From positions 25,378 through 89,377 of the forward strand of contig CBDBIG010000001.1 of NCBI GenBank assembly GCA_965205845.1: a stretch of 64,000 nucleotides of DNA, written 5' to 3'. The notes beneath the pieces are model-generated. The model had not been told where the DNA came from and made no database searches. It saw nothing but the letters and a program-made list of their open reading frames with translations. Made by a program: the position numbers and the translations under genes. Source of the DNA: CBDBIG01 sp965205845 [NCBI: bacterium] (GTDB lineage Bacteria > SAR324). Positions 4,104 to 57,693 of the stretch are shown here, piece after piece (the first letter of the stretch is position 1; every line of letters begins with the position of its first letter).

Positions 4104-4239
4104 CTTTTTTTGCTTGCCTTTGGTTTAAATCGTGCTAGGGTATAGGTAGCTGGCTTGGCTGGTCCGCAGCACCTTTAGCCGAACGAGCTGTCCACGTGGA
4201 GCCGTGTCGCGTGTGATATCCTTTTCTACCTTTTGTAGA

Positions 4240-4802
4240 TCAACCTTCCTGCCCGACGCTTTTGTAATGCTTTGAGGTTGTCCACCCCGTGAGGATGCCC
4301 TTGTGGGCATTGGCCACGAACAAAATGCCCTTGCGCCCAAACATCCCCTCTTTAAAAGCCTTGATGTAGCGCAGGCGTAGGGCGATGCGCCCCGTGGTTT
4401 TGCTCTTTTCGAAAGCCAGCCAAACCTCGTAGGGGTCTTCGAGCACCTCGGGGAGCAGGGGTAAAAAACGCCCCCTTTCGAGGTCGCTTGTGGCCAAATG
4501 TTCACCCAGCGCCTCGGCATTCACCAGCACATCATGCCTAAAATCCCCTTGCTTTAGGGTAAACACCTTTTCTTGCGCTCCTAAAGCCCTTTTTAAGGTG
4601 GCCTTAAGCGAGGCTGCATCGTGGACGCGCGTTGCAAAGGCTTTTTTGCTCTAGTGCCAGCCATACGTGCTATTTTGCGTCCCTCTGCCTCGTTCACAAA
4701 GCGACTAATCTCTGCCCGCTCAACGTCCAAAAAATAGCCACCGCGTCCCATGTCCCAATCTCTTGGCAGCAGTTGCGCATCCAGTGGGTTATCTGGCGCA
4801 TC
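4240..4802 (-). pseudogene. Mu-like minor head protein (gp30/SPP1 gp7 type), C-terminal remnant with nuclease-fold domain
   Basis: Two frames join into one C-terminal fragment. The first piece (from 4802) reads LLPRDWDMGRGGYFLDVERA, then RFVNEAEGRKIARMAGTRAKK. A one-base shift near 4650 continues as FATRVHDAASLKATLKRAL, then KQGDFRHDVLVN, LPEVLEDPYEVWLAFEK, LRLRYIKAF and GILTGWTTSKHY. The latter part is the PBECR-type (Barnase/EndoU/ColicinE5/RelE-like) domain often found at the end of Mu-like head morphogenesis proteins. The main head domain is missing; upstream of 4802 the frame hits stops and then the 11-bp repeat. Confidence 0.65.
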
Positions 4803-4830
4803 TCAAAACGTGGTTCAGGCGTTGGCATCC

Positions 4831-4915
4831 GTTGGCAAAGTGTTGGCAAAGTGTTGGCAAAGTGTTGGCAAAGTGTTGGCAAAGTGTTGGCAAAGTGTTG
4901 GCAAAGTGTTGGCAC
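4831..4915. repeat. 11-bp tandem repeat, about 7.7 copies
   Basis: Unit GTTGGCAAAGT repeated without interruption from 4831, ending in a partial copy GTTGGCA at 4908-4914. It sits at the junction between the GemA and head-protein remnants, so it probably marks a slippage or deletion scar. Confidence 0.9.
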
Positions 4916-5060
4916 GGCGCAAGGTGTGCACTGCAAGCAGGTTCACCGCTTCGAAAAAATAGGAGCGAGACCCCTAAGGGCAAACAAGGTGGCGTTATTT
5001 TTTTGGCCTGAAGTGCGCTCAGGGTAGTCGCGTGCCTTGTCCGCGCGGCGTGTTGCACCG

Positions 5061-5257
5061 CTAATTTTGCGCTGCCAGCCAAGGCGTTGGCGGGACATTT
5101 TTTGGTAGGTTTTTTGCGCTGCGCACCCCGGAGTTGCTTACCCAGCCCGCGGTATTGGGCATCGCCGAAAGCCCATTTTGCTCGATTGGGCGTGCAGGGC
5201 CGCGTATTTTTTATTGCGGTAGGCTTGCTCGTTGGGTGCATAGGATTTGGTTTTCAT
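5061..5257 (-). pseudogene. GemA/Mu gp16-like regulator remnant, frameshifted
   Basis: It starts at ATG 5257 (MKTKSYAPNEQAYRNKKYAA). The segment KKYAALHAQSSKMGF, then after a shift GDAQYR, then after another shift SGVRSAKNL, follows the GemA pattern (helix, hydrophobic, (D)-x-x-YR, then TG(V)xSAxxL). The three pieces lie in three frames; the last ends at 5061 (WLAAQN stop). GemA in Mu modulates host gene expression and is an early or middle gene, which fits its place after the small early ORFs. Its start overlaps the preceding small membrane ORF (ATGA). Confidence 0.5.
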
Positions 5258-5361
5258 GGGCCCTCCTCGCACATTTCCAACATGCCGTAGGCAGCGAACC
5301 CACCCATAAAAAACCCAAATCCGCTCACTACGGCGTCGCAAAGCGTTTGCAAAAAACTCAT
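5254..5361 (-). CDS. Small membrane protein in the prophage early cluster (35 aa)
   Basis: Reads MSFLQTLCDAVVSGFGFF, then MGGFAAYGMLEMCEEGP. One predicted hydrophobic helix with glycines. Its start overlaps the stop of the upstream ORF (ATGA) and its own stop overlaps the GemA-like start in the same way, the coupling seen in compact phage operons, so I think it was a real gene. Function unknown; too short to call a holin. Confidence 0.45.
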   Translation of the reverse strand: MSFLQTLCDAVVSGFGFFMGGFAAYGMLEMCEEGP

Positions 5362-5534
5362 AGCGCCACCTCATGCGCAAGGGTCGCTTTTTTTATCCGG
5401 ATGCTTTGGGGGTGGTTTGGAGCCACAGCAAAGACTTCGCCCGCGCTTTTGATGCAAACCCCCGCAACTTGGATTGCCATTTGTGGGGAGCGGAGCATCG
5501 CCTCCTTGTCGCCCCCTTTGTTAGTGATGCTCAT
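5358..5534 (-). CDS. Small phage protein, unknown (58 aa)
   Basis: Starts MSITNKGGDKEAMLRSPQMA and ends KKATLAHEVAL. The start codon overlaps the end of the gene before it (GATGAGCATCACTAA) and the stop overlaps the next start (ATGA). It is intact, unlike its neighbours. No family recognised. Confidence 0.45.
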   Translation of the reverse strand: MSITNKGGDKEAMLRSPQMAIQVAGVCIKSAGEVFAVAPNHPQSIRIKKATLAHEVAL

Positions 5535-5948
5535 CTAAGAACTTGCCTTGCCCTTTAACCGTTGCGAGACTTTCAAAGTCTTCGCTCAACAAAAAAACCT
5601 TGCCATAGTCTTTTTCGTGCCCGTGGTAGGGCTAAGTCGAGGTAGAAGGGGGGGTTTTTGTTGAATCGTAGCGGTTGAGCACGTCTTGACCAAGGTTTGC
5701 ACTCAAGATGCGCACCCTGGCATCGTACTTGTTGGCCTTGACTTGCTCGGCTGGCGCGTAAAAAACTGCGCTGCTGGCTGGGCGGTGGCCTGGGTGATGG
5801 GGCTGGCTGCGTAACTTTGTGCAAACACCGCATCAAATCGCCCGTCACAAAGTGCAGGGTCAACCCTGTCTGCATGCATCACCGCCTTTTTATCTTCAAC
5901 ATCTCGTGGGTCAAATTGATTTAAAAAAGGTTGCAGGGTGCTTGACAT
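5521..5948 (-). pseudogene. Phage early protein, unknown family, multiply frameshifted
   Basis: It starts MSSTLQPFLNQFDPRD at 5948, overlapping the end of the replication-like gene, and runs to AAQFF. Conceptual repair at a T run (about 5762) gives YAPAEQVKANKYDARVRILS and NLGQDVLNRYDSTKTPP. Repair at the 7-base C run (about 5650) gives FYLDLALP, and a third change gives YHGHEKDYGKVFLLSEDFES and GQGKFLDEHH, ending at 5521. About 140 aa if intact. At least three indels, two in homopolymers. I do not recognise the family. Confidence 0.5.
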
Positions 5949-6792
5949 AATTCAACTCTCTGTCATACAGCCCAGCATCGAATACACCTTGCTCCAATAT
6001 TTCCAACACGTTCTTAAGGGTGTATATTTTGTGTTCGCCTTGCTTTACGCGCTTTTTGTCTTGTGCCTTAAACCAATTCAATTTGGTGTCAAATGCCTTG
6101 CGTGCCATAAGCCTGCCTTCTTTGCGTGGGTAGCCTTGGTATTTTTTTAGCAATGGCAACCCCAACGCCAGGGCATGCGCTTTGGCTTGCCCATCTTCTT
6201 TGCGTGGGGGATCAGCGTTGCCAAAATAAAACAGCACGAAGGCTGATTCTCGGATATCCTCTATCATGTGCTGCTGCGTCTTCTTGGCGGGCTTACTTGG
6301 GGGTATTGCTGGCTGCTGTCCTTTTGCTGACCGCTGTTCGCCTCGGGGTTTCGGGGCTGCTTTTTTTCTTACCACCGGTTCGCGTTCCTCCCACAGCGAA
6401 CAATCTGTAGGGCGCAAGCAATACTCACCACGCTTGCAATGACCACACTCACCACGCTTGCAATGACCACACTCACCACGCTTGCAATGACCACACTCAC
6501 CACGCTTGCAATGACCACGGCTTAGCCAAAGCATGTTGCGTTTGGCCATGCGCTTTACTACCTGCCCAACCCAACCAGGGCTCCGCTTAATCATCGCGCC
6601 CAAAGTCTTGTTGGTAAAAAGGGCATGGGAACGTCCATGCTCTGTGCATCCCATCACAGCAGCCCATACCCGCATTTCAGTGGGTGTCCAATCCCCCCTT
6701 GCTACCCCCTCAAGGGCTTGGTTATAGCCTATGGGCAGCACAGCAACATCCCCATTTTGTGCCCCCTTATTTTGTGCAACCGCTTCACGCAT
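5911..6792 (-). CDS. Phage replication-type winged-helix protein with Cys-rich octapeptide repeats
   Basis: 293 aa, intact. Residues 28-90 (GDWTPTEMRVWAAVMGC, then LFTNKTLGAMIKRSPGWVGQ and RMAKRNMLWLSR) look like the winged helix-turn-helix of phage or plasmid replication-initiation proteins. Residues about 92-123 are four near-identical octapeptides GHCKRGEC, encoded by a 24-bp tandem repeat, giving a Cys/His-rich stretch that could bind metal. A basic linker (KKAAPKPRGEQRSAKG) and a mixed C-terminal domain ending in ATFFKSI follow. Strong ribosome-binding site AAAGGAGG upstream of the ATG at 6792. It is the only sizeable intact gene of the prophage. The replication role is inferred from fold impression and position. 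Confidence 0.55.
   Translation of the reverse strand: MREAVAQNKGAQNGDVAVLPIGYNQALEGVARGDWTPTEMRVWAAVMGCTEHGRSHALFTNKTLGAMIKRSPGWVGQVVKRMAKRNMLWLSRGHCKRGECGHCKRGECGHCKRGECGHCKRGEYCLRPTDCSLWEEREPVVRKKAAPKPRGEQRSAKGQQPAIPPSKPAKKTQQHMIEDIRESAFVLFYFGNADPPRKEDGQAKAHALALGLPLLKKYQGYPRKEGRLMARKAFDTKLNWFKAQDKKRVKQGEHKIYTLKNVLEILEQGVFDAGLYDRELNYVKHPATFFKSI
6426..6521. repeat. 24-bp in-frame tandem repeat, 4 copies (last incomplete)
   Basis: Unit CACCACGCTTGCAATGACCACACT on the plus strand (split: CACCACGCTTGC and AATGACCACACT), starting 6426, 6450, 6474 and 6498. It encodes the octapeptide GHCKRGEC on the minus strand. Confidence 0.9.
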
Positions 6793-9952: not shown

Positions 9953-11149
9953 TCACAAAGAACCCGTGAGCACACCAATCGCATTTTTTTCATGGTTCTC
10001 GGCAGAAGGAAAATCCACGGATGTTTGCGACGGGGCATTTGGGGAAGGCGGCACAGCGTCACCGCCCTTCGCCATCGAAGGGGTGTGCACCAAAGATGTT
10101 TGAGGGGAATTCGTACGCAGTTTTTTATTGCTGCGGGTGACACGCAGCAGGGAATCTCCCGAGATGTTGCGCTCAGCCAAAAAACGCAGCAAGTCTTTGA
10201 GCACTTTGGCAGAATCTTGGGGAAACTGCAGCGCATCAACCTGAAACGTTGCTTGGGTGGGCAAAGCCTTCAGGCACTGATTCATTTGCTTGGTCGCCTT
10301 GCTCAGCACCGCAGGGGAGGGTTTGGTTCCATGAGCGTCGCACCAAGCGGTTTCAAGCAACACCTTTACCAACGGTTCTTGACCGAGCACATCTTTTAAA
10401 AATAAGTGCTGCAAAACGCGCTGGCACAAGGTGTGCCATGGGGGCTGCACCCCAAGCTCTACGGCAATCATGGGGTGGGTTTCCATTTGGCATAGCGTGG
10501 GTGGTGACAAGGTTTTTTGGCCATGAGCTTGGCCAATCCACTGGTGTAAGCACTCAACCAAACGAAGCAAGGCTTGTACATGCTGGGTGGTAGGAGGGCT
10601 CGACTGAGGCAACTGGATGCCAATGTGAATGCATGATCTATTTTCGGGCAGTGAATGTTTTTGGAATAGGGTTGCCATGTGTCTAAAGCCTGTGAAGTAC
10701 AATTGCCACGTGTTCGCCAAAGCATTAACCTCGATCAACAAGCCAACAACCTCACCATGACTCAAAGTTTTGTGGTAGCGGTAATACTCCCAGTATTTTT
10801 GGAATAGGGCTTCTACCTTGTCTCCAATGCTGGCCAGTGCATGCAGATCATTGCCGCTTCTTTTTGCTTGTTCGTGCAGGTCGACATTTTCCAAGCGCAG
10901 CAAAGCACGGCGTATGGCGGTTAAAAACGGTTGAATGCGGGTACAATAAACCTCGTTAAACAAGCGCGGGCGAAGTTCGCCCTCAACCAATGCCTCCAAC
11001 GATGTCGACGCGGGCTGCTGGGCTAACTGCAAAACAAAGGCATCATGCACCTCACGGCCGTAACGCAAAGTGCCATCTAGAAGTTGAACAAACTCTTGGG
11101 TTAGGGGAGAGAAGCGCGAAAAGTCGCGCTGAATGGTATTCCACAGCAT
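9953..11149 (-). CDS. Hypothetical protein, mostly helical, with low-complexity tail
   Basis: About 398 aa from the ATG at 11149 (MLWNTIQRDFSRFSPLTQEF). A longer frame starting at 11269 overlaps the tandem-repeat region and is less likely; GGAAGAGGAG lies about 16 nt before the chosen ATG, so the start is uncertain. Residues 1-180 are rich in amphipathic helices, with DLHALASIGDKVEALFQKYW as an example. The final 60 residues are Ser/Pro/Asn rich and probably disordered. No signal peptide or membrane segment. No family recognised. It lies immediately downstream, on the minus strand, of the 37-bp repeat array. Confidence 0.6.
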   Translation of the reverse strand: MLWNTIQRDFSRFSPLTQEFVQLLDGTLRYGREVHDAFVLQLAQQPASTSLEALVEGELRPRLFNEVYCTRIQPFLTAIRRALLRLENVDLHEQAKRSGNDLHALASIGDKVEALFQKYWEYYRYHKTLSHGEVVGLLIEVNALANTWQLYFTGFRHMATLFQKHSLPENRSCIHIGIQLPQSSPPTTQHVQALLRLVECLHQWIGQAHGQKTLSPPTLCQMETHPMIAVELGVQPPWHTLCQRVLQHLFLKDVLGQEPLVKVLLETAWCDAHGTKPSPAVLSKATKQMNQCLKALPTQATFQVDALQFPQDSAKVLKDLLRFLAERNISGDSLLRVTRSNKKLRTNSPQTSLVHTPSMAKGGDAVPPSPNAPSQTSVDFPSAENHEKNAIGVLTGSL

Positions 11150-11265
11150 AAAATAAGTTTCGATGCTCCTCTTCCATGAGCCACCCGCCTGTTTGAACGA
11201 GGCGAAAAATACACCGGATGTTGGCAGCCAACATCCACCCTCCGCGCACCGGCCCGTAACCCAAT

Positions 11266-11635
11266 GCACAGGCTACTAGAACCATTGATTGACATTGCCT
11301 TTGCACAGGCTACTAGAACCACTTATTGACATTGCCTTTGCACAGGCTACTAGAACCATTGATTGACATTGCCTTTGCACAGGCTACTAGAACCACTTAT
11401 TGACATTGCCTTTGCACAGGCTACTAGAACCATTGATTGACATTGCCTTTGCACAGGCTACTAGAACCATTGATTGACATTGCCTTTGCACAGGCTACTA
11501 GAACCATTGATTGACATTGCCTTTGCACAGGCTACTAGAACCATTGATTGACATTGCCTTTGCACAGGCTACTAGAACCATTGATTGACATTGCCTTTGC
11601 ACAGGCTACTAGAACCATTGATTGACATTGCCTTG
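11266..11635. repeat. 37-bp tandem repeat, 10 copies
   Basis: Unit GCACAGGCTACTAGAACC followed by ATTGATTGACATTGCCTTT, head to tail with no spacers. Copies start at 11266 and every 37 bp to 11599. Copies 2 and 4 carry CTTATT in place of TTGATT. Every copy contains TTGACA on the plus strand. It fills the gap between ndk and the unknown gene. Confidence 0.95.
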
Positions 11636-11645
11636 TCCAAACCCC

Positions 11646-12065
11646 TTAAACTAACTCCAACTGGCTAAAAAAGTAGGCTATTTCCCATTGGGCGGTATCA
11701 GGCGCATCAGAACCGTGCACCGTATTTTCTTCCACGTTTTCTGCCAGATCGGCACGAATGGTGCCTTGATCTGCTTTGGCAGGGTCTGTTGCTCCCATAA
11801 GTTTGCGATTTTTGGCAATGGCATCCTCACCCTCTAGCACAAGCGCCATAATGGGGCCGCTGGCCATGTATTGTGTCAGGCTTTGGTAAAAGGGGCGCTC
11901 CTTGTGTACGGCATAAAACCCTTGGGCTTGGGCCTGGCTTAGATGCAGGCGCTTGGCAGCACAAATGGTCAGATTGGCTTGCTCAAAACGGCGAATGATT
12001 TCACCACTTAAATGGCGTCGAACGCCATCGGGTTTGATTAAAGAAAGGGTACGTTCGCTGGCCAT
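11646..12065 (-). CDS. ndk: Nucleoside diphosphate kinase
   Basis: Transfers the terminal phosphate between NTPs and NDPs through a phospho-histidine. 139 aa. Start [20 protein letters not shown] at 12065 matches the family's usual N-terminus; a frame open to 12140 is only an upstream extension. Active-site segment [12 protein letters not shown] contains the catalytic His, and [14 protein letters not shown] precedes it. The gene begins about 95 bp downstream of aroQ on the same strand, and its 3' end abuts the 37-bp repeat. The ribosome-binding site is weak. Confidence 0.95.
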
Positions 12066-12160
12066 AAAAATTCTAAAAAAAACATAAAAACGGAGGCACA
12101 ATAGCAGGGGGTCGGGCGACACACACTTTATAGAAAGCATCTATTAAACAGCAAAAAAAA

Positions 12161-49471: not shown

Positions 49472-49502
49472 AGGGAATTATATACTTTACACCGGAAATA
49501 TA
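49472..49502 (+). repeat. Left terminal inverted repeat of the IS1595 element
   Basis: Begins AGGGAATTATATACTTTACA and ends CCGGAAATATA; exact complement of 51731-51761. Confidence 0.95.
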
Positions 49503-49880
49503 TTGCCCGTAATCGGCGTAAGTGGCACAGCACGGGAAAATATACGTGGTTTTAATTTGTTAAGAAAATTACCGTAGTTTTCAGTATTGGCAATTAAGCA
49601 CTCGTTCAGACCCGCGATGTCGCCTTCGGCAATCTTTCGGGATACCCCTGCCGCTTCATCAGACAAAGTTATCAGATAGCTTTCAGCTATTGCGGTACAC
49701 TTGTCGCAATGCAATTCCTTCAAGGTCAGCTTGCTTATACCGTTCGCGTAACGATACCTTCATTGACAGCACAACCGGTCGCTTTGGCGTTATAGCAGAC
49801 CACATCAAAGTCGGCGTTAGGTACATGAGCAAATCTTGCTTGATAGTAAAACGGACTAGTCTGTTCCCGCGCTAGTGTTT
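49487..49880 (-). pseudogene. Restriction endonuclease-like remnant, N-terminally truncated and frameshifted
   Basis: Three pieces in three frames: QTSPFYYQARFAHVPNADFD, VVCYNAKATGCAVNEG (about 49735-49870); MKVSLRERYKQADLEGIALR, QVYRNS (49683-49764); and ESYLITLSDEAAGVSRKIAE, IAGLNECLIANTENYGNFLN (49487-49690). Joined they give about 130 residues resembling the C-terminal part of a type II restriction enzyme, as expected beside a cognate methyltransferase; the family call is inference. The stop codon of the last piece (PITGNIFPV, then TAA) lies inside the left terminal repeat. Confidence 0.5.
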
Positions 49881-50766
49881 CACAAACACAAGTTCGCAGT
49901 AGATTTCCCCACTCCTGCCGCCGATGATTTCGTCAATTTCAGTCCGCATTCTTTGTTTATCCGCGCTATCGTTAAACTGCAATAATCTGATTCCTGTTCA
50001 ATGCCCAATGCCATACGCCCAAGACCAACCGCCTCAATCATGGTTGTACCACTGCCAACGAAAGGGTCAAGCACCGTATCTCCAGGGATAAGACAGTGGT
50101 TTAATACATCTTGATGGCAATTCGCGAGGGATAAGGTGCTTCATGCCCTATTCGTTTCGCACTTTCTCCATTAAAAGTCCACACGCCCAAAACCCAGTCC
50201 TTAAACTCTTGTGCACTGATGTCGCTTTTTCCTTGCCGTTCCCGCTTCCAGTCACCTTTGTATAGGATGATAATGGTTTCAACGGGTGCGATGATGTGCG
50301 GTGCGCTGGCAGATTTCCAGCTACCCCAAGCAGTGCGCCGACTTATATTGCCTTCGTTCCATACAACTGTGGCATGGTACTTCCACCCTGCGGCGAGCGC
50401 GGCGGTGGTGATGTCCGCGCTCAATGGTTGTTTGCCGTTCTTGTTTTTGTCCAGCGATACATTAACGCATAACCGGCCGGTCGGTCGTGTCCAATGGAAA
50501 CAGTTTTCAAGCCATTTTCGAGAAAATTTCAAATAATCCGTATAGCTCAATTCATCACCAGCAGTGCTACCGTTATATGCTTTGCTCAAATTATATGGGG
50601 GGCTAGTAACAATCAAATCTGCTACGCCACCTTTCAGTGTGTTACGCATAGTGGTATCGCCTTGAATCAATCGATGTTCACAAGGCGACAATTCGGCGGC
50701 ATTCGGTCGGTACTCCATGATGCGGTCTATCCCAAAATCCAATTGGGCTTGTGTTAAGCCGCTCAT
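49872..50766 (-). pseudogene. Type II DNA methyltransferase (beta class, N4/N6), frameshifted
   Basis: Amino-methyltransferase that would protect host DNA. The first frame (50766-50101, 221 aa) has motif IV TSPPYN followed by target-recognition sequence (WKYHATVVWNEGNISRRTAW) and ends PSRIAIKMY. A frame change near 50100 continues with motif I: GDTVLDPFVGSGTTMIEAVG, then GIEQESDY; another change gives SADKQRMRTEIDEIIGGRSG and ends at 49872. Motif IV before motif I defines the beta class. The AdoMet-binding motif is out of frame, so the gene is probably dead unless a frameshift is programmed. Confidence 0.8.
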
Positions 50767-50823
50767 TGGGTTAATTCAGTATAAGTCAACTCGCTTGTCC
50801 TATCTGCGTTCATCAACAGGCTT

Positions 50824-51702
50824 TCAAGCCGGGCAGGCTGTATCAATTTTGCAATTCCCCTCGTTCAGCCGGAAAGTAAATTCATCTACATAGCGGTGTA
50901 AATGCTTAACGCTCCAGTTATGATATACTCCATTGTAGCCTCGTTTCAACACTTCCCAGACGCTTTGCTCTATACCGTTGGTATGCGCCATACCGTTCAC
51001 ATATTCCTTTGCGCTGTGATTGACTGTGCCATGACTATATGCGGTATGTAGCCGGTTATACGCTGGATGTTCGTCCGTACAAACCGTAGAACCAAACTCA
51101 ACCGTTTTCCCTACTTCGGCGTTTATGGTACCGATATCTGTTCTAGTGATGGGCTTTGCCGTAGTCCTACCCCCGCGCTCCCTCATGCCAATAACTGCCT
51201 GTTTCCCACTACCACCTTGTGAACCCGGTGTTTTCTTGTGGTTATGTTTATTGGCTTCCTTGCCACCAATATAGGTCTCGTCTATCTCTACAATGCCTCG
51301 CAACTGCTCCATGTCCCCGCCACAAGCCAATCTCAACCGATGGAGAATGAACCATGCCGTCTTTTGAGAAACGCCGATTTCCTTTGATAATTGCAAGCTG
51401 GAAACGCCCTTCCTGCTAGTCATCAATAGATAGATAACATAAATCCACTTATTGAGTTTAACGTGTGATTTTTCAAATACCGTCCCAGTGCGAACGCTGA
51501 AATGCGCTCTGCAAGCCCTACAATCGTAAAAGCCATTTCTCGCTTTACGCACATAGATATTTCTGCTTTTGCAGTGTGGACAAACAATGCCATCATGCCA
51601 GCGTATTTTTTCCAGATGATTCCTCGCACTTGTATGGTCGGGAAAAATTTGAAATAATTGGTATGTACTAATAGTATTATTTTTCACGGATAATCTCCAC
51701 AT
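50824..51702 (-). CDS. IS1595-family (ISXO2-like) transposase
   Basis: 292 aa from the ATG at 51702 (MWRLSVKNNTISTYQLFQIF); a TTG at 51711 (then KPM) is also possible. N-terminal zinc ribbon (CPHCKSRNIYV, YDCRACRAHF), HTH (SSLQLSKEIGVSQKTAWFIL), then the DDE-type ISXO2 domain: EIDETYIGGKEANKH, VCTDEHPAY and the ERxNG-like end GIEQSVWEVLKRGYNGVYHN. Intact. Its start region is covered by a perfect hairpin. Confidence 0.93.
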   Translation of the reverse strand: MWRLSVKNNTISTYQLFQIFPDHTSARNHLEKIRWHDGIVCPHCKSRNIYVRKARNGFYDCRACRAHFSVRTGTVFEKSHVKLNKWIYVIYLLMTSRKGVSSLQLSKEIGVSQKTAWFILHRLRLACGGDMEQLRGIVEIDETYIGGKEANKHNHKKTPGSQGGSGKQAVIGMRERGGRTTAKPITRTDIGTINAEVGKTVEFGSTVCTDEHPAYNRLHTAYSHGTVNHSAKEYVNGMAHTNGIEQSVWEVLKRGYNGVYHNWSVKHLHRYVDEFTFRLNEGNCKIDTACPA

Positions 51703-51723
51703 TGGCTTCAATGTGGAGATTAT
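51690..51723. promoter_or_regulatory. Perfect 14-bp hairpin over the transposase start codon
   Basis: ATAATCTCCACATT (51690-51703), loop GGCTTC, AATGTGGAGATTAT (51710-51723). Both candidate start codons (51702 ATG, 51711 TTG) lie in it, so in RNA the start would be buried. Such structures limit transposase translation from read-through transcripts in other IS families. Confidence 0.7.
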
Positions 51724-51730
51724 ACCGGAT

Positions 51731-51761
51731 TATATTTCCGGTGTAAAGTATATAATTCCCT
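51731..51761 (-). repeat. Right terminal inverted repeat of the IS1595 element
   Basis: Exact reverse complement of 49472-49502 over 31 bp; the next inner and outer bases do not match, which sets the repeat length. Confidence 0.95.
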
Positions 51762-51915: not shown

Positions 51916-53055
51916 TTAAGTGGAGTGAATGCTAAGCCGCGCGTTTTGACGCTGGAGGATGCTTCCTGGCCCGTCAAGCGTCCAATGGAGCTTGTTTTGC
52001 TGCAGTAGATTTAAGGTATTTTGCATTTGCTTATGCCCCCAGGTGCGCTGGGTATGGTGTTGAATCCAACGATGAATTACGACAGACTGCAAAAAAGGCG
52101 GCAAGGCGAGTATCGGTTGAACGCAAAGGGTGTTTTGCTGGGTATTTAAGGTGGATCGGTCGGTTTTTGTGAAAGGGGTTTGACGGGTTGCCTTTATCGG
52201 TTGAACGCAAAGGGTGTTTTGCTGGGTATTTAAGGTGGATCGGTCGGTTTTTGTGAAAGGGGTTTGACGGGTTGCCTTTTGGGGATTGGTGGCTGCCTGC
52301 AACGCTTGCTCGACCCATGCATTAAGGGAGTTTGCTTGTTGAGCGGTTTGCAACAAGCGTTTACGCCACACTTTACCAAGCAGGCTATCTAGTTGCGGAA
52401 TGGTACGGTGGCGCAGGCGATTGCGCGCATAACTTAGGGTGGCGTTGCTGGGGTCTTCCAGCCACGGCTGTTGCAGTTGCTGAAGGTAGTTTGTAATATT
52501 GGCGCGGGATATATGCAGCAATGGGCGAAAAAAAATCCCATTTTGCGCTGCAACACCTTGCCACGTACTTAAATGCACACCCCGTTGCCATTGAAAAAGC
52601 AAGGTTTCAATTTGGTCATCTTGGTGGTGGGCAAGGGCAACGCCCGTTGCGCCAAGGGTTTGCGCCATTAGGTGATATTCATGAATGCGCCAGGTGCGTG
52701 CTGCAGCTTGCAAACCAGGGCGAGGCCCTTTGCCAGATGGATTAAGGGGGGTTTTAGCCTTTATCGCCAAATTGCTCGCTTTGCGTACATAAAAAGGCAC
52801 ATCCAAAGCGCGTGTTTGCTGCGCCACCCATGCGGCCTCTTCGGGGCATTCGGGGCGTAGACCATGATTGAAGTGCAATACGCACAACTGCCAAGCCAAT
52901 TTTGAGCGCAAAGCGTTCAAAATCCGCAAAAGTGCTATCGAATCTCTGCCGCCACTCACGGCAACCAACACCTTGCTGGCGGGTGGTGGCCATTTGGTGC
53001 GGCGCAATGTAGAAAGCACATCACGCTCTAAAAAATACAACCCCCGCCTTGGCAT
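51916..53055 (-). CDS. tilS: tRNA(Ile)-lysidine synthetase
   Basis: Modifies C34 of tRNA-Ile(CAU) to lysidine with ATP. 379 aa. PP-loop SGGRDS at about residues 34-39, then HFNHGLR, LAHHQDDQIETLLFQW and RPLLHISRANITNYL, all TilS signatures. The C-terminal half is shorter than usual and contains a perfect in-frame tandem duplication of 28 residues (KATRQTPFTKTDRSTLNTQQ..., encoded by 52112-52279). An essential enzyme in most bacteria, so the duplication must be tolerated. Confidence 0.9.
   Translation of the reverse strand: MPRRGLYFLERDVLSTLRRTKWPPPASKVLVAVSGGRDSIALLRILNALRSKLAWQLCVLHFNHGLRPECPEEAAWVAQQTRALDVPFYVRKASNLAIKAKTPLNPSGKGPRPGLQAAARTWRIHEYHLMAQTLGATGVALAHHQDDQIETLLFQWQRGVHLSTWQGVAAQNGIFFRPLLHISRANITNYLQQLQQPWLEDPSNATLSYARNRLRHRTIPQLDSLLGKVWRKRLLQTAQQANSLNAWVEQALQAATNPQKATRQTPFTKTDRSTLNTQQNTLCVQPIKATRQTPFTKTDRSTLNTQQNTLCVQPILALPPFLQSVVIHRWIQHHTQRTWGHKQMQNTLNLLQQNKLHWTLDGPGSILQRQNARLSIHST
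52112..52279. repeat. 84-bp perfect tandem duplication inside tilS
   Basis: Copies 52112-52195 and 52196-52279 are identical; 84 bp keeps the frame and duplicates 28 residues of TilS. Confidence 0.95.
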
Positions 53056-57424: not shown

Positions 57425-57490
57425 ACGAATAACCCTTCGTCATTCATGGGTATTTTTTCAAAACCATTCTACCATGACTCTCTCCCCAAA

Positions 57491-57693
57491 GAGCCAGTGC
57501 GCCATCCTTTGCAGACGTGCCACGAATCCACACGCTTTGGCTCAAGGATTGTAAACATTCCCCATCACCACCCCACAGTGCCCCATCCTTTGAGATAAGC
57601 CCATGCCCCCCAAGGAGCCAGTGCGCCATCCTTTGCAGACGTGCCACGAATCCACACGCTTTGGCTCAAGGATTGTAAACATTCCCCATCACC
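57491..57693. repeat. 79-bp direct repeat, two copies 124 bp apart
   Basis: GAGCCAGTGCGCCATCCTTT at 57491 and again at 57615, matching through CCCCATCACC (57569 and 57693). The spacer carries a shorter related piece (CCCCATCCTTTGAGATAAGC). Non-coding; upstream of the Nudix gene. Confidence 0.9.

What the first reader, a model, noticed from the sequence alone, without database searches (positions are those of the whole stretch)
49472..51761. IS1595-family element with a restriction-modification module as cargo between perfect terminal repeats
The 31-bp inverted repeats at 49472-49502 and 51731-51761 match exactly and enclose transposase, methyltransferase and endonuclease remnant, all in one direction. 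The plain reading is that the R-M genes were mobilised by the element itself rather than by a composite of two IS copies. IS1595-family elements with passenger genes are known; whether this R-M type is among known cargo I cannot say. An R-M addiction module inside a minimal transposon would explain its persistence.
Basis: partly seen in the sequence, partly recalled or inferred. Interest (0 to 1): 0.78.

Follow-up and report, generated by a model that had tools for sequence, protein, structure and literature searches.

The report
Jumping gene carrying a restriction-modification system
A small bacterial jumping gene carries, between its own ends, a now broken DNA-protection system that cuts unmarked DNA, and its relatives in several bacterial phyla often carry other, unrelated systems of the same sort, so it looks like a vehicle by which such defences move.

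Summary
A 31-bp perfect inverted repeat (49472-49502 / 51731-51761) bounds a 2.29-kb element with an IS1595-family transposase, an N4/N6-type DNA methyltransferase and a remnant of a BsaWI-like restriction endonuclease, all on the minus strand. One transposon with an R-M passenger is supported by relatives found through the transposase alone: in 41 delimited elements the same kind of end (GGGAATTATATAC-like, plus a ~10-bp block largely private to each element) encloses transposase plus cargo; 37 of 41 have an exact 8-bp target duplication and 21 of 41 carry a DNA methyltransferase, usually with unrelated nuclease partners (BglII, HindIII, HNH, GIY-YIG, type IIG-like, C5 systems). One genome holds three copies (two identical, one with a single inserted base) of a transposase + methylase-HNH element, each with its own duplication. 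Methylase carriage concentrates in one well-supported transposase clade that includes the window (20 of 35 versus 3 of 30), though a second sample gave only 2 of 10. The window copy is decayed (methylase, nuclease and probably transposase tail frame-broken; no duplication), so addiction does not explain its persistence. IS1595 elements with passengers are known; frequent, exchangeable R-M cargo in one clade I found in no paper I could search.

The parts
49472..51761 (-). whole element, 2290 bp; by comparison with relatives the transposon proper runs GGG (49473) to CCC (51760)
51731..51761 (-). terminal inverted repeat at the transposase end; holds the -35 hexamer of a predicted transposase promoter
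49472..49502 (+). terminal inverted repeat at the cargo end
51719..51747 (-). promoter-like TTTACA-17-TATAAT (11 of 12 matches), reading into the transposase; spacer bounded by ACCGGA and TCCGGT
   Evidence: the best of 5 promoter-like sites in the region, where shuffles give 4.4, so a consensus match and not proof
51690..51723 (-). perfect 15-bp hairpin whose 3' arm holds a likely ribosome-binding site of the transposase (GGAG, by eye)
   Evidence: z = -5.4 for 51660-51761
50824..51711 (-). IS1595-family transposase, DDE core open; probable frame break before the last ~25 residues (tail in another frame, about 50766-50846)
50101..50766 (-). DNA methyltransferase, N-terminal two thirds (TSPPY motif), ends at a frame break
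49880..50074 (-). methyltransferase C-terminal part in another frame (DPFVGSGTT motif)
49487..49949 (-). remnant of a type II restriction endonuclease, BsaWI-like, at least three frame breaks

Best explanation
This is a decayed copy of an IS1595-family transposon that carries a type II restriction-modification module as passenger (a 'transporter IS', tIS). The transposase recognises the ~24-bp functional part of the two ends (outer GGGAATTATATAC block, inner element-specific block), moves the whole unit with its cargo, and makes an 8-bp duplication of an AT-rich target. The methyltransferase and endonuclease ride along and would have given the carrying genome restriction of foreign DNA. It belongs to a clade in which unrelated R-M modules, and sometimes other defence-like genes, occupy the same slot between transposase and far end. 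Shown here: ends, transposase family, cargo, target duplications and multi-copy spread in relatives, different cargo types on neighbouring branches of the transposase tree, decay of this copy. Inferred: that the transposase binds these ends, that the R-M module was active and selected, that this copy lost its target duplication through a later rearrangement.
For: Perfect 31-bp ends and enclosed genes. Relatives chosen by transposase only: 41 delimited elements, 37 with exact 8-bp duplications; positions 1-12 of the ends largely conserved between elements, positions 14-23 matched within an element (83-100%) but mostly variable between elements (24-49%, except 73% and 66% at positions 19 and 23). 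21 of the 41 carry a methyltransferase, with BglII (L005), HindIII (L049), HNH (L002, L051, L053, L055, L056, L079, L082, L119), GIY-YIG (L047), N6 methylase + specificity subunit (L004, L010, L105), other annotated type II enzymes (L003, L059). L079 and L080 are identical and L081 differs by one inserted base over 2530 bp, with duplications AAATTAAA, TAAATTTT, TTATTTTA; removing L080 plus one duplication joins a 205-aa frame. L004 and L010 share cargo at 93% over 2878 bp in a Cycloclasticus symbiont of a sponge and a Bathymodiolus symbiont. Clade of 35 transposases including the window: bootstrap 100 / SH-aLRT 99; methylase in 20 of 35 inside against 3 of 30 outside, Fisher p = 7.6e-5.
Against: No target duplication in the window; no second copy or empty site could be sought because the genome is not held and a miaB search gave no match at the strict limit set. 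In the second sample only 2 of 10 in-clade transposases had a methylase, significantly fewer than 18 of 25 in the first (p = 0.008), so R-M is a common, not a defining, cargo. Of eight plasmid relatives whose annotation I looked at (36-47% identity) none has an annotated methylase beside the transposase. The BsaWI match is just under the curated cut-off.
Confidence: 0.9

Rival explanations
1. The R-M genes are an independent island beside a cargo-less IS; the matching far repeat arose by a solo end or a second, deleted IS copy.
For: No target duplication in the window.
Against: The far end is identical to the near end over 31 bp. In relatives the far end lies beyond the cargo with an 8-bp duplication round the whole unit in 37 of 41, and near-identical whole units are repeated in one genome.
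Confidence: 0.05
2. The R-M pair moved as a composite transposon between two IS copies or by self-mobility of R-M genes with long target duplications, as described by Kobayashi's group.
For: R-M systems flanked by IS copies, and R-M units with imperfect inverted repeats and short duplications, are reported (passages of PMC3031569, and PMC3874152).
Against: Only one IS1595 transposase and one pair of these ends in the window; no direct repeats flanking the module in the repeat scans.
Confidence: 0.03
3. The frame breaks are sequencing errors and the element is intact and active.
For: The ends are perfect and the DDE core is open; the organism and read type are unknown.
Against: At least six breaks within about 1.2 kb while neighbouring genes of 441, 379 and 1082 codons are open and long frames cover 83% of the window.
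Confidence: 0.1

Closest known systems
IS1595 family with passenger genes (tIS), e.g. MTnSag1/tISSag10 and tISCpe8
   Same: IS1595 DDE transposase, ~25-bp inverted repeats, target duplication, passenger inside the ends (passages of PMC5704250; 8-bp duplications of the family from PMC8101967; tIS as a concept from PMC3129680)
   Different: tISCpe8 is a lincomycin-resistance element (title in the reference list; the passenger of MTnSag1 is recalled); here it is a type II R-M module, and relatives in one clade carry many unrelated R-M modules
R-M systems moving with IS elements (PaeR7I with IS1/IS5; composite forms)
   Same: An IS and an R-M system travel together (abstract and passages of PMC3031569)
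   Different: There the link is cointegration or a pair of IS copies; here the R-M genes lie inside one element's own ends
R-M units with imperfect inverted repeats and short target duplications (reference 81, Furuta et al. 2010, in PMC3874152)
   Same: R-M genes bounded by transposon-like ends
   Different: Described there as moving unlinked to any mobile element (passage); the original paper is not held. Some might be relatives of this family that lack the transposase; not tested
BsaWI type II R-M system
   Same: Endonuclease remnant matches RE_BsaWI
   Different: Below the curated cut-off, frame-broken; sequence specificity unknown

Membership tests
IS1595 family | C-terminal DDE_Tnp_IS1595 domain | tested here: met
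   PF12762 E=4.8e-41; NF033547 3.4e-55; D144, D213 and E248 invariant among 10 sequences (catalytic role by position, recalled)
IS1595 family | N-terminal zinc-ribbon (all groups but IS1016) | tested here: met
   PF12760 E=2.9e-9; criterion from PMC8101967 passage
IS1595 family | terminal inverted repeats at the ends of the element | tested here: met
   31 of 31; GG start shared by 41 of 41 delimited elements
IS1595 family | 8-bp target duplication (usual, per PMC8101967) | tested here: not met
   none for the window copy at 16 registers tried; met in 37 of 41 delimited elements. The source calls it usual, so membership rests on transposase and ends
tIS (IS with passenger genes) | non-transposition genes between the ends of a single IS | tested here: met
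   methylase and endonuclease remnant inside the arms
Type II restriction-modification system | DNA methyltransferase with catalytic motifs | tested here: met
   N6_N4_Mtase 7.6e-18 and 1.1e-8 on two pieces; 53% identical to residues 45-239 of a Calditerrivibrio plasmid methylase; gene broken
Type II restriction-modification system | cognate restriction endonuclease | tested here: inconclusive
   RE_BsaWI E=1.2e-5, 25.7 bits against 26.2; gene broken
Type II restriction-modification system | restriction and methylation activity | not testable with these tools
   needs the host or expression
Composite transposon | two IS copies flanking the cargo | tested here: not met
   one IS1595 transposase and one pair of these ends in the window

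The most novel reading that the evidence does not exclude
The carried methyltransferase gates transposition of its own vehicle. The predicted transposase promoter of the window element (-35 inside the terminal repeat) has a 17-bp spacer bounded by ACCGGA and TCCGGT, which fit WCCGGW, the recalled site of BsaWI, the family the endonuclease resembles. On arrival in an unmethylated genome the promoter would be unmethylated and open; once the module is established, methylation would damp it, giving a burst of transposition and then silence.
Probability: 0.07. Interest if true: 0.85.

Novelty: new variant of a known kind. Interest (0 to 1): 0.6.

Why it matters
How compact type II R-M systems spread between distant bacteria is often put down to self-mobility or to chance carriage. 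A clade of small transposons that repeatedly takes up unrelated R-M modules between its own ends, and multiplies with them, would be a direct vehicle, with exact ends to search for and small intact members to test for transposition of a defence system.

Tried and rejected
Whole-genome search of the window's own assembly: not held, so copy number and empty site could not be tested. Exact end pattern in viral contigs: 0 hits; whole element by blastn in plasmids: none; methylase in viral contigs: no relative. Two phage records encode a distant transposase (39-40% identity); not followed up. An empty site was sought through miaB in 369 genomes: nothing at E <= 1e-150, a limit too strict to rank relatives. 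The annotated HNH endonuclease beside the Calditerrivibrio plasmid methylase does not match the window's endonuclease, so the pairing is not conserved there. PDB sequence search of the read-through endonuclease: no credible hit.

WCCGGW sites: 4 in the element against 0.5 expected from the rest of the window, but 1.6 expected from the element's own base steps, P = 0.086; a pair within 25 nt anywhere in such an element has P = 0.021, looked at after the fact. In two relatives with better-known enzymes the cognate sites (recalled) do not lie at the ends (HindIII in L049, one site inside the transposase; BglII in L005, none). Hence only a lead.

A hairpin before the transposase was looked for in 10 elements: strong in the window (z -5.4), L001 (-3.2) and L005 (-2.8), weaker in L047 and L074 (-1.35, -1.2), absent by z-score in the other five; not a general feature.

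Counting rules and rows left out. First sample: the 15 loci, 20 regions chosen from the 45 places (the lowest-scoring places and those already held with wide flanks left out), 20 regions chosen from the 28 places, and four plasmid hits (L094-L097). One search lists 60 transposase rows from these and the window; 39 could be delimited automatically, 34 of them with 8 of 8 duplicated bases at the best of 20 registers. Second sample: 20 regions covering the new places. Trees: 49 of the 60 rows had an open transposase frame; 47 rows, 65, 64. In the trees methylase status also counts genes adjacent but not delimited (L065, L084), and one 'no' row is cut by its contig end (L013). Four more plasmid regions (L098-L101) were looked at by annotation only. 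Background: 5 methylase HMM hits in 4 loci in 309.8 kb outside delimited elements against 21 of 39 rows in 91.9 kb of cargo, with HMMs built from these same methylases.

Literature: ten searches gave no paper that describes IS1595-family elements with R-M cargo in the listings and passages I saw (passages); Siguier et al. 2009, the defining paper, was seen only as a reference, Furuta et al. 2010 is not held, and ISfinder was not available, so prior description is possible.

Full report
What is there. The 31-bp arms at 49472-49502 and 51731-51761 match perfectly and are the only perfect pair among three inverted pairs of 22 nt or more in the window. They lie between miaB (ends 49313) and tilS (51916-53055; gene names by sight), neither of which is interrupted. 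On the minus strand, from the 51761 end, come a promoter-like TTTACA-17-TATAAT whose first hexamer is inside the repeat (11 of 12 matches, but promoter-like sites in the region are no more frequent than in shuffles), a perfect 15-bp hairpin over the likely ribosome-binding site, an IS1595-family transposase, a DNA methyltransferase with TSPPY and DPFVGSGTT motifs in different frames, and pieces of an endonuclease that, read with X at the breaks, match RE_BsaWI at E=1.2e-5, 0.5 bits below the curated cut-off.

State of this copy. At least two frame breaks lie in the methyltransferase, at least three in the endonuclease, and the C-terminal tail that relatives of the transposase share is in another frame. 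Since open frames of 100 codons or more cover 83% of the window and both neighbours are open, I take the breaks as real decay. There is no 8-bp duplication. So the R-M addiction idea cannot explain the persistence of this copy, although it may explain that of intact relatives.

Relatives by transposase alone. A scan of species genomes with the transposase gave 15 loci in Gammaproteobacteria (among them a sponge and a mussel symbiont), Chloroflexota (L001), Dadabacteria (L002) and Bacteroidota (L009, L011, L012) by their record titles. Searching 12 of their genomes and 369 genomes of one class, of which 12 had a match at 1e-50, gave further places; 20 regions of each were fetched. The ends proved alike: GGGAATTATATAC or close variants, then a block of about ten bases that is nearly identical at the two ends of one element (83-100% per position) and mostly differs between elements; identity between the two ends falls off after position 24. 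Of 41 delimited elements 37 have an exact 8-bp duplication; those duplications are 86% A+T. The four without are the window, L005 (contig edge, not testable), L052 (7 of 8) and L082.

Cargo. 21 of the 41 carry a DNA methyltransferase. Named partners: Endonuc-BglII (L005, 1.1e-18), RE_HindIII (L049, 1.4e-104), HNH fused or adjacent (L002, L051, L053, L055, L056, L079, L082, L119; for L051 by my own profile only), T5orf172/GIY-YIG (L047, methylase in two frames), N6 methylase with Methylase_S (L004, L105; L010 by 93% identity to L004), PADLOC type II enzymes (L003, 3.5e-12; L059, 2.4e-88), BsaWI-like (window); L074, L083 and L054 are long methylase fusions without a secure nuclease match (Mrr_cat only 0.015 for L083), and L009 has a C5 methylase with no nuclease found. 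Other elements carry phage-antirepressor-like genes (Bro-N L048, L066; KilA-N L052, L113; RhuM L011; P63C with DUF3800 L107, L108), a ThsB-like TIR protein with MazG_C and UDG (L078), an RNase_T-type exonuclease (L008), a protein weakly like 2TM effectors (L006), and unknowns.

Movement as a unit. In one genome, held essentially as one contig of 2.16 Mb, L079 and L080 are identical over 2530 bp and L081 differs by one inserted base, at three places with three different duplications; taking out L080 and one duplication joins a 205-codon frame, the other two sites span no frame of 80 codons. A KilA-N element is likewise present in several copies on the 2.3-Mb contig of another genome, three of them with different duplications. 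L004 and L010 show nearly the same cargo in two different symbionts, 93% over 2878 bp, with more divergent ends (80-85%).

Is R-M cargo a property of the clade? In a tree of 65 transposases a clade of 35 that holds the window is well supported (SH-aLRT 99; bootstrap 100 / SH-aLRT 99 with 64 rows). Methylase carriage is 20 of 35 inside and 3 of 30 outside, Fisher p=7.6e-5, and it is clustered beyond label shuffles (1 or 0 of 500 as low). Against this, the second sample, gathered after the idea, gives 2 of 10 inside the clade compared with 18 of 25 in the first (p=0.008); several rows of the first sample come from the same few genomes, and eight plasmid relatives looked at by annotation have no annotated methylase beside the transposase. 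I therefore claim that R-M modules are a frequent and repeatedly exchanged cargo in this clade, not its rule. Neighbouring branches carry quite different modules (for instance L074 methylase fusion beside L119 methylase-HNH; L006 beside L047; L049 HindIII beside L104 without methylase), which is what exchange between conserved ends would give.

How it most likely works. A DDE transposase of the IS1595 type acts on the 24-bp ends and inserts into AT-rich DNA with an 8-bp duplication; whether by cut-and-paste or by copying is not known from this work. The window's hairpin would hide the ribosome-binding site in transcripts that come from outside while transcripts from the internal promoter would start within it; this is known for other IS (recalled, IS10/IS50) and is an inference here, with a similar fold in only some relatives.

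Known or new. IS1595-family elements with passengers are an established kind: passages seen in PMC3129680, PMC5704250 and, for the family's features, PMC8101967. R-M systems linked with IS are known from PMC3031569 (abstract and passages) and the review PMC3874152 (passages), which also mentions R-M units with imperfect inverted repeats and short duplications. Casposons carrying methylases and one carrying an IS1595 element are in PMC4046053 (passage). I found no text on R-M modules as IS1595 cargo in ten searches of the open library, but the defining paper of the family and ISfinder could not be consulted. I rate it a new variant of a known kind.

Noticed in passing
window 52111-52278: Exact 84-bp tandem duplication in frame inside tilS (28 codons doubled).
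   Followed up: no
window 11191-11708: About ten copies of a 37-bp tandem unit next to the frames 9953-11269 and 11646-12140.
   Followed up: no
window 4809-4936, 6399-6518, 57484-57693: Other short tandem repeats (11-bp and 24-bp units) and a near-exact 86-bp duplication with a 124-bp spacing.
   Followed up: no
window 51719-51747: Spacer of the predicted transposase promoter is bounded by ACCGGA and TCCGGT, fitting the recalled site of the enzyme family that the cargo endonuclease resembles.
   Followed up: partly
L008 about 4150-6772: The end of one element and a second whole element of this family stand in tandem and share the duplication TTAATTTA; the second carries an RNase_T-type exonuclease gene.
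   Followed up: partly
L048, L052, L066, L011, L107, L108, L113: Sister elements carry Bro-N, KilA-N, RhuM or P63C genes, as if a second kind of cargo (antirepressor-like or candidate defence genes) is favoured in neighbouring transposase branches.
   Followed up: partly
L078 1814-6996: Element with a ThsB-like TIR protein, a MazG_C protein and a uracil-DNA-glycosylase-like protein between the ends.
   Followed up: no
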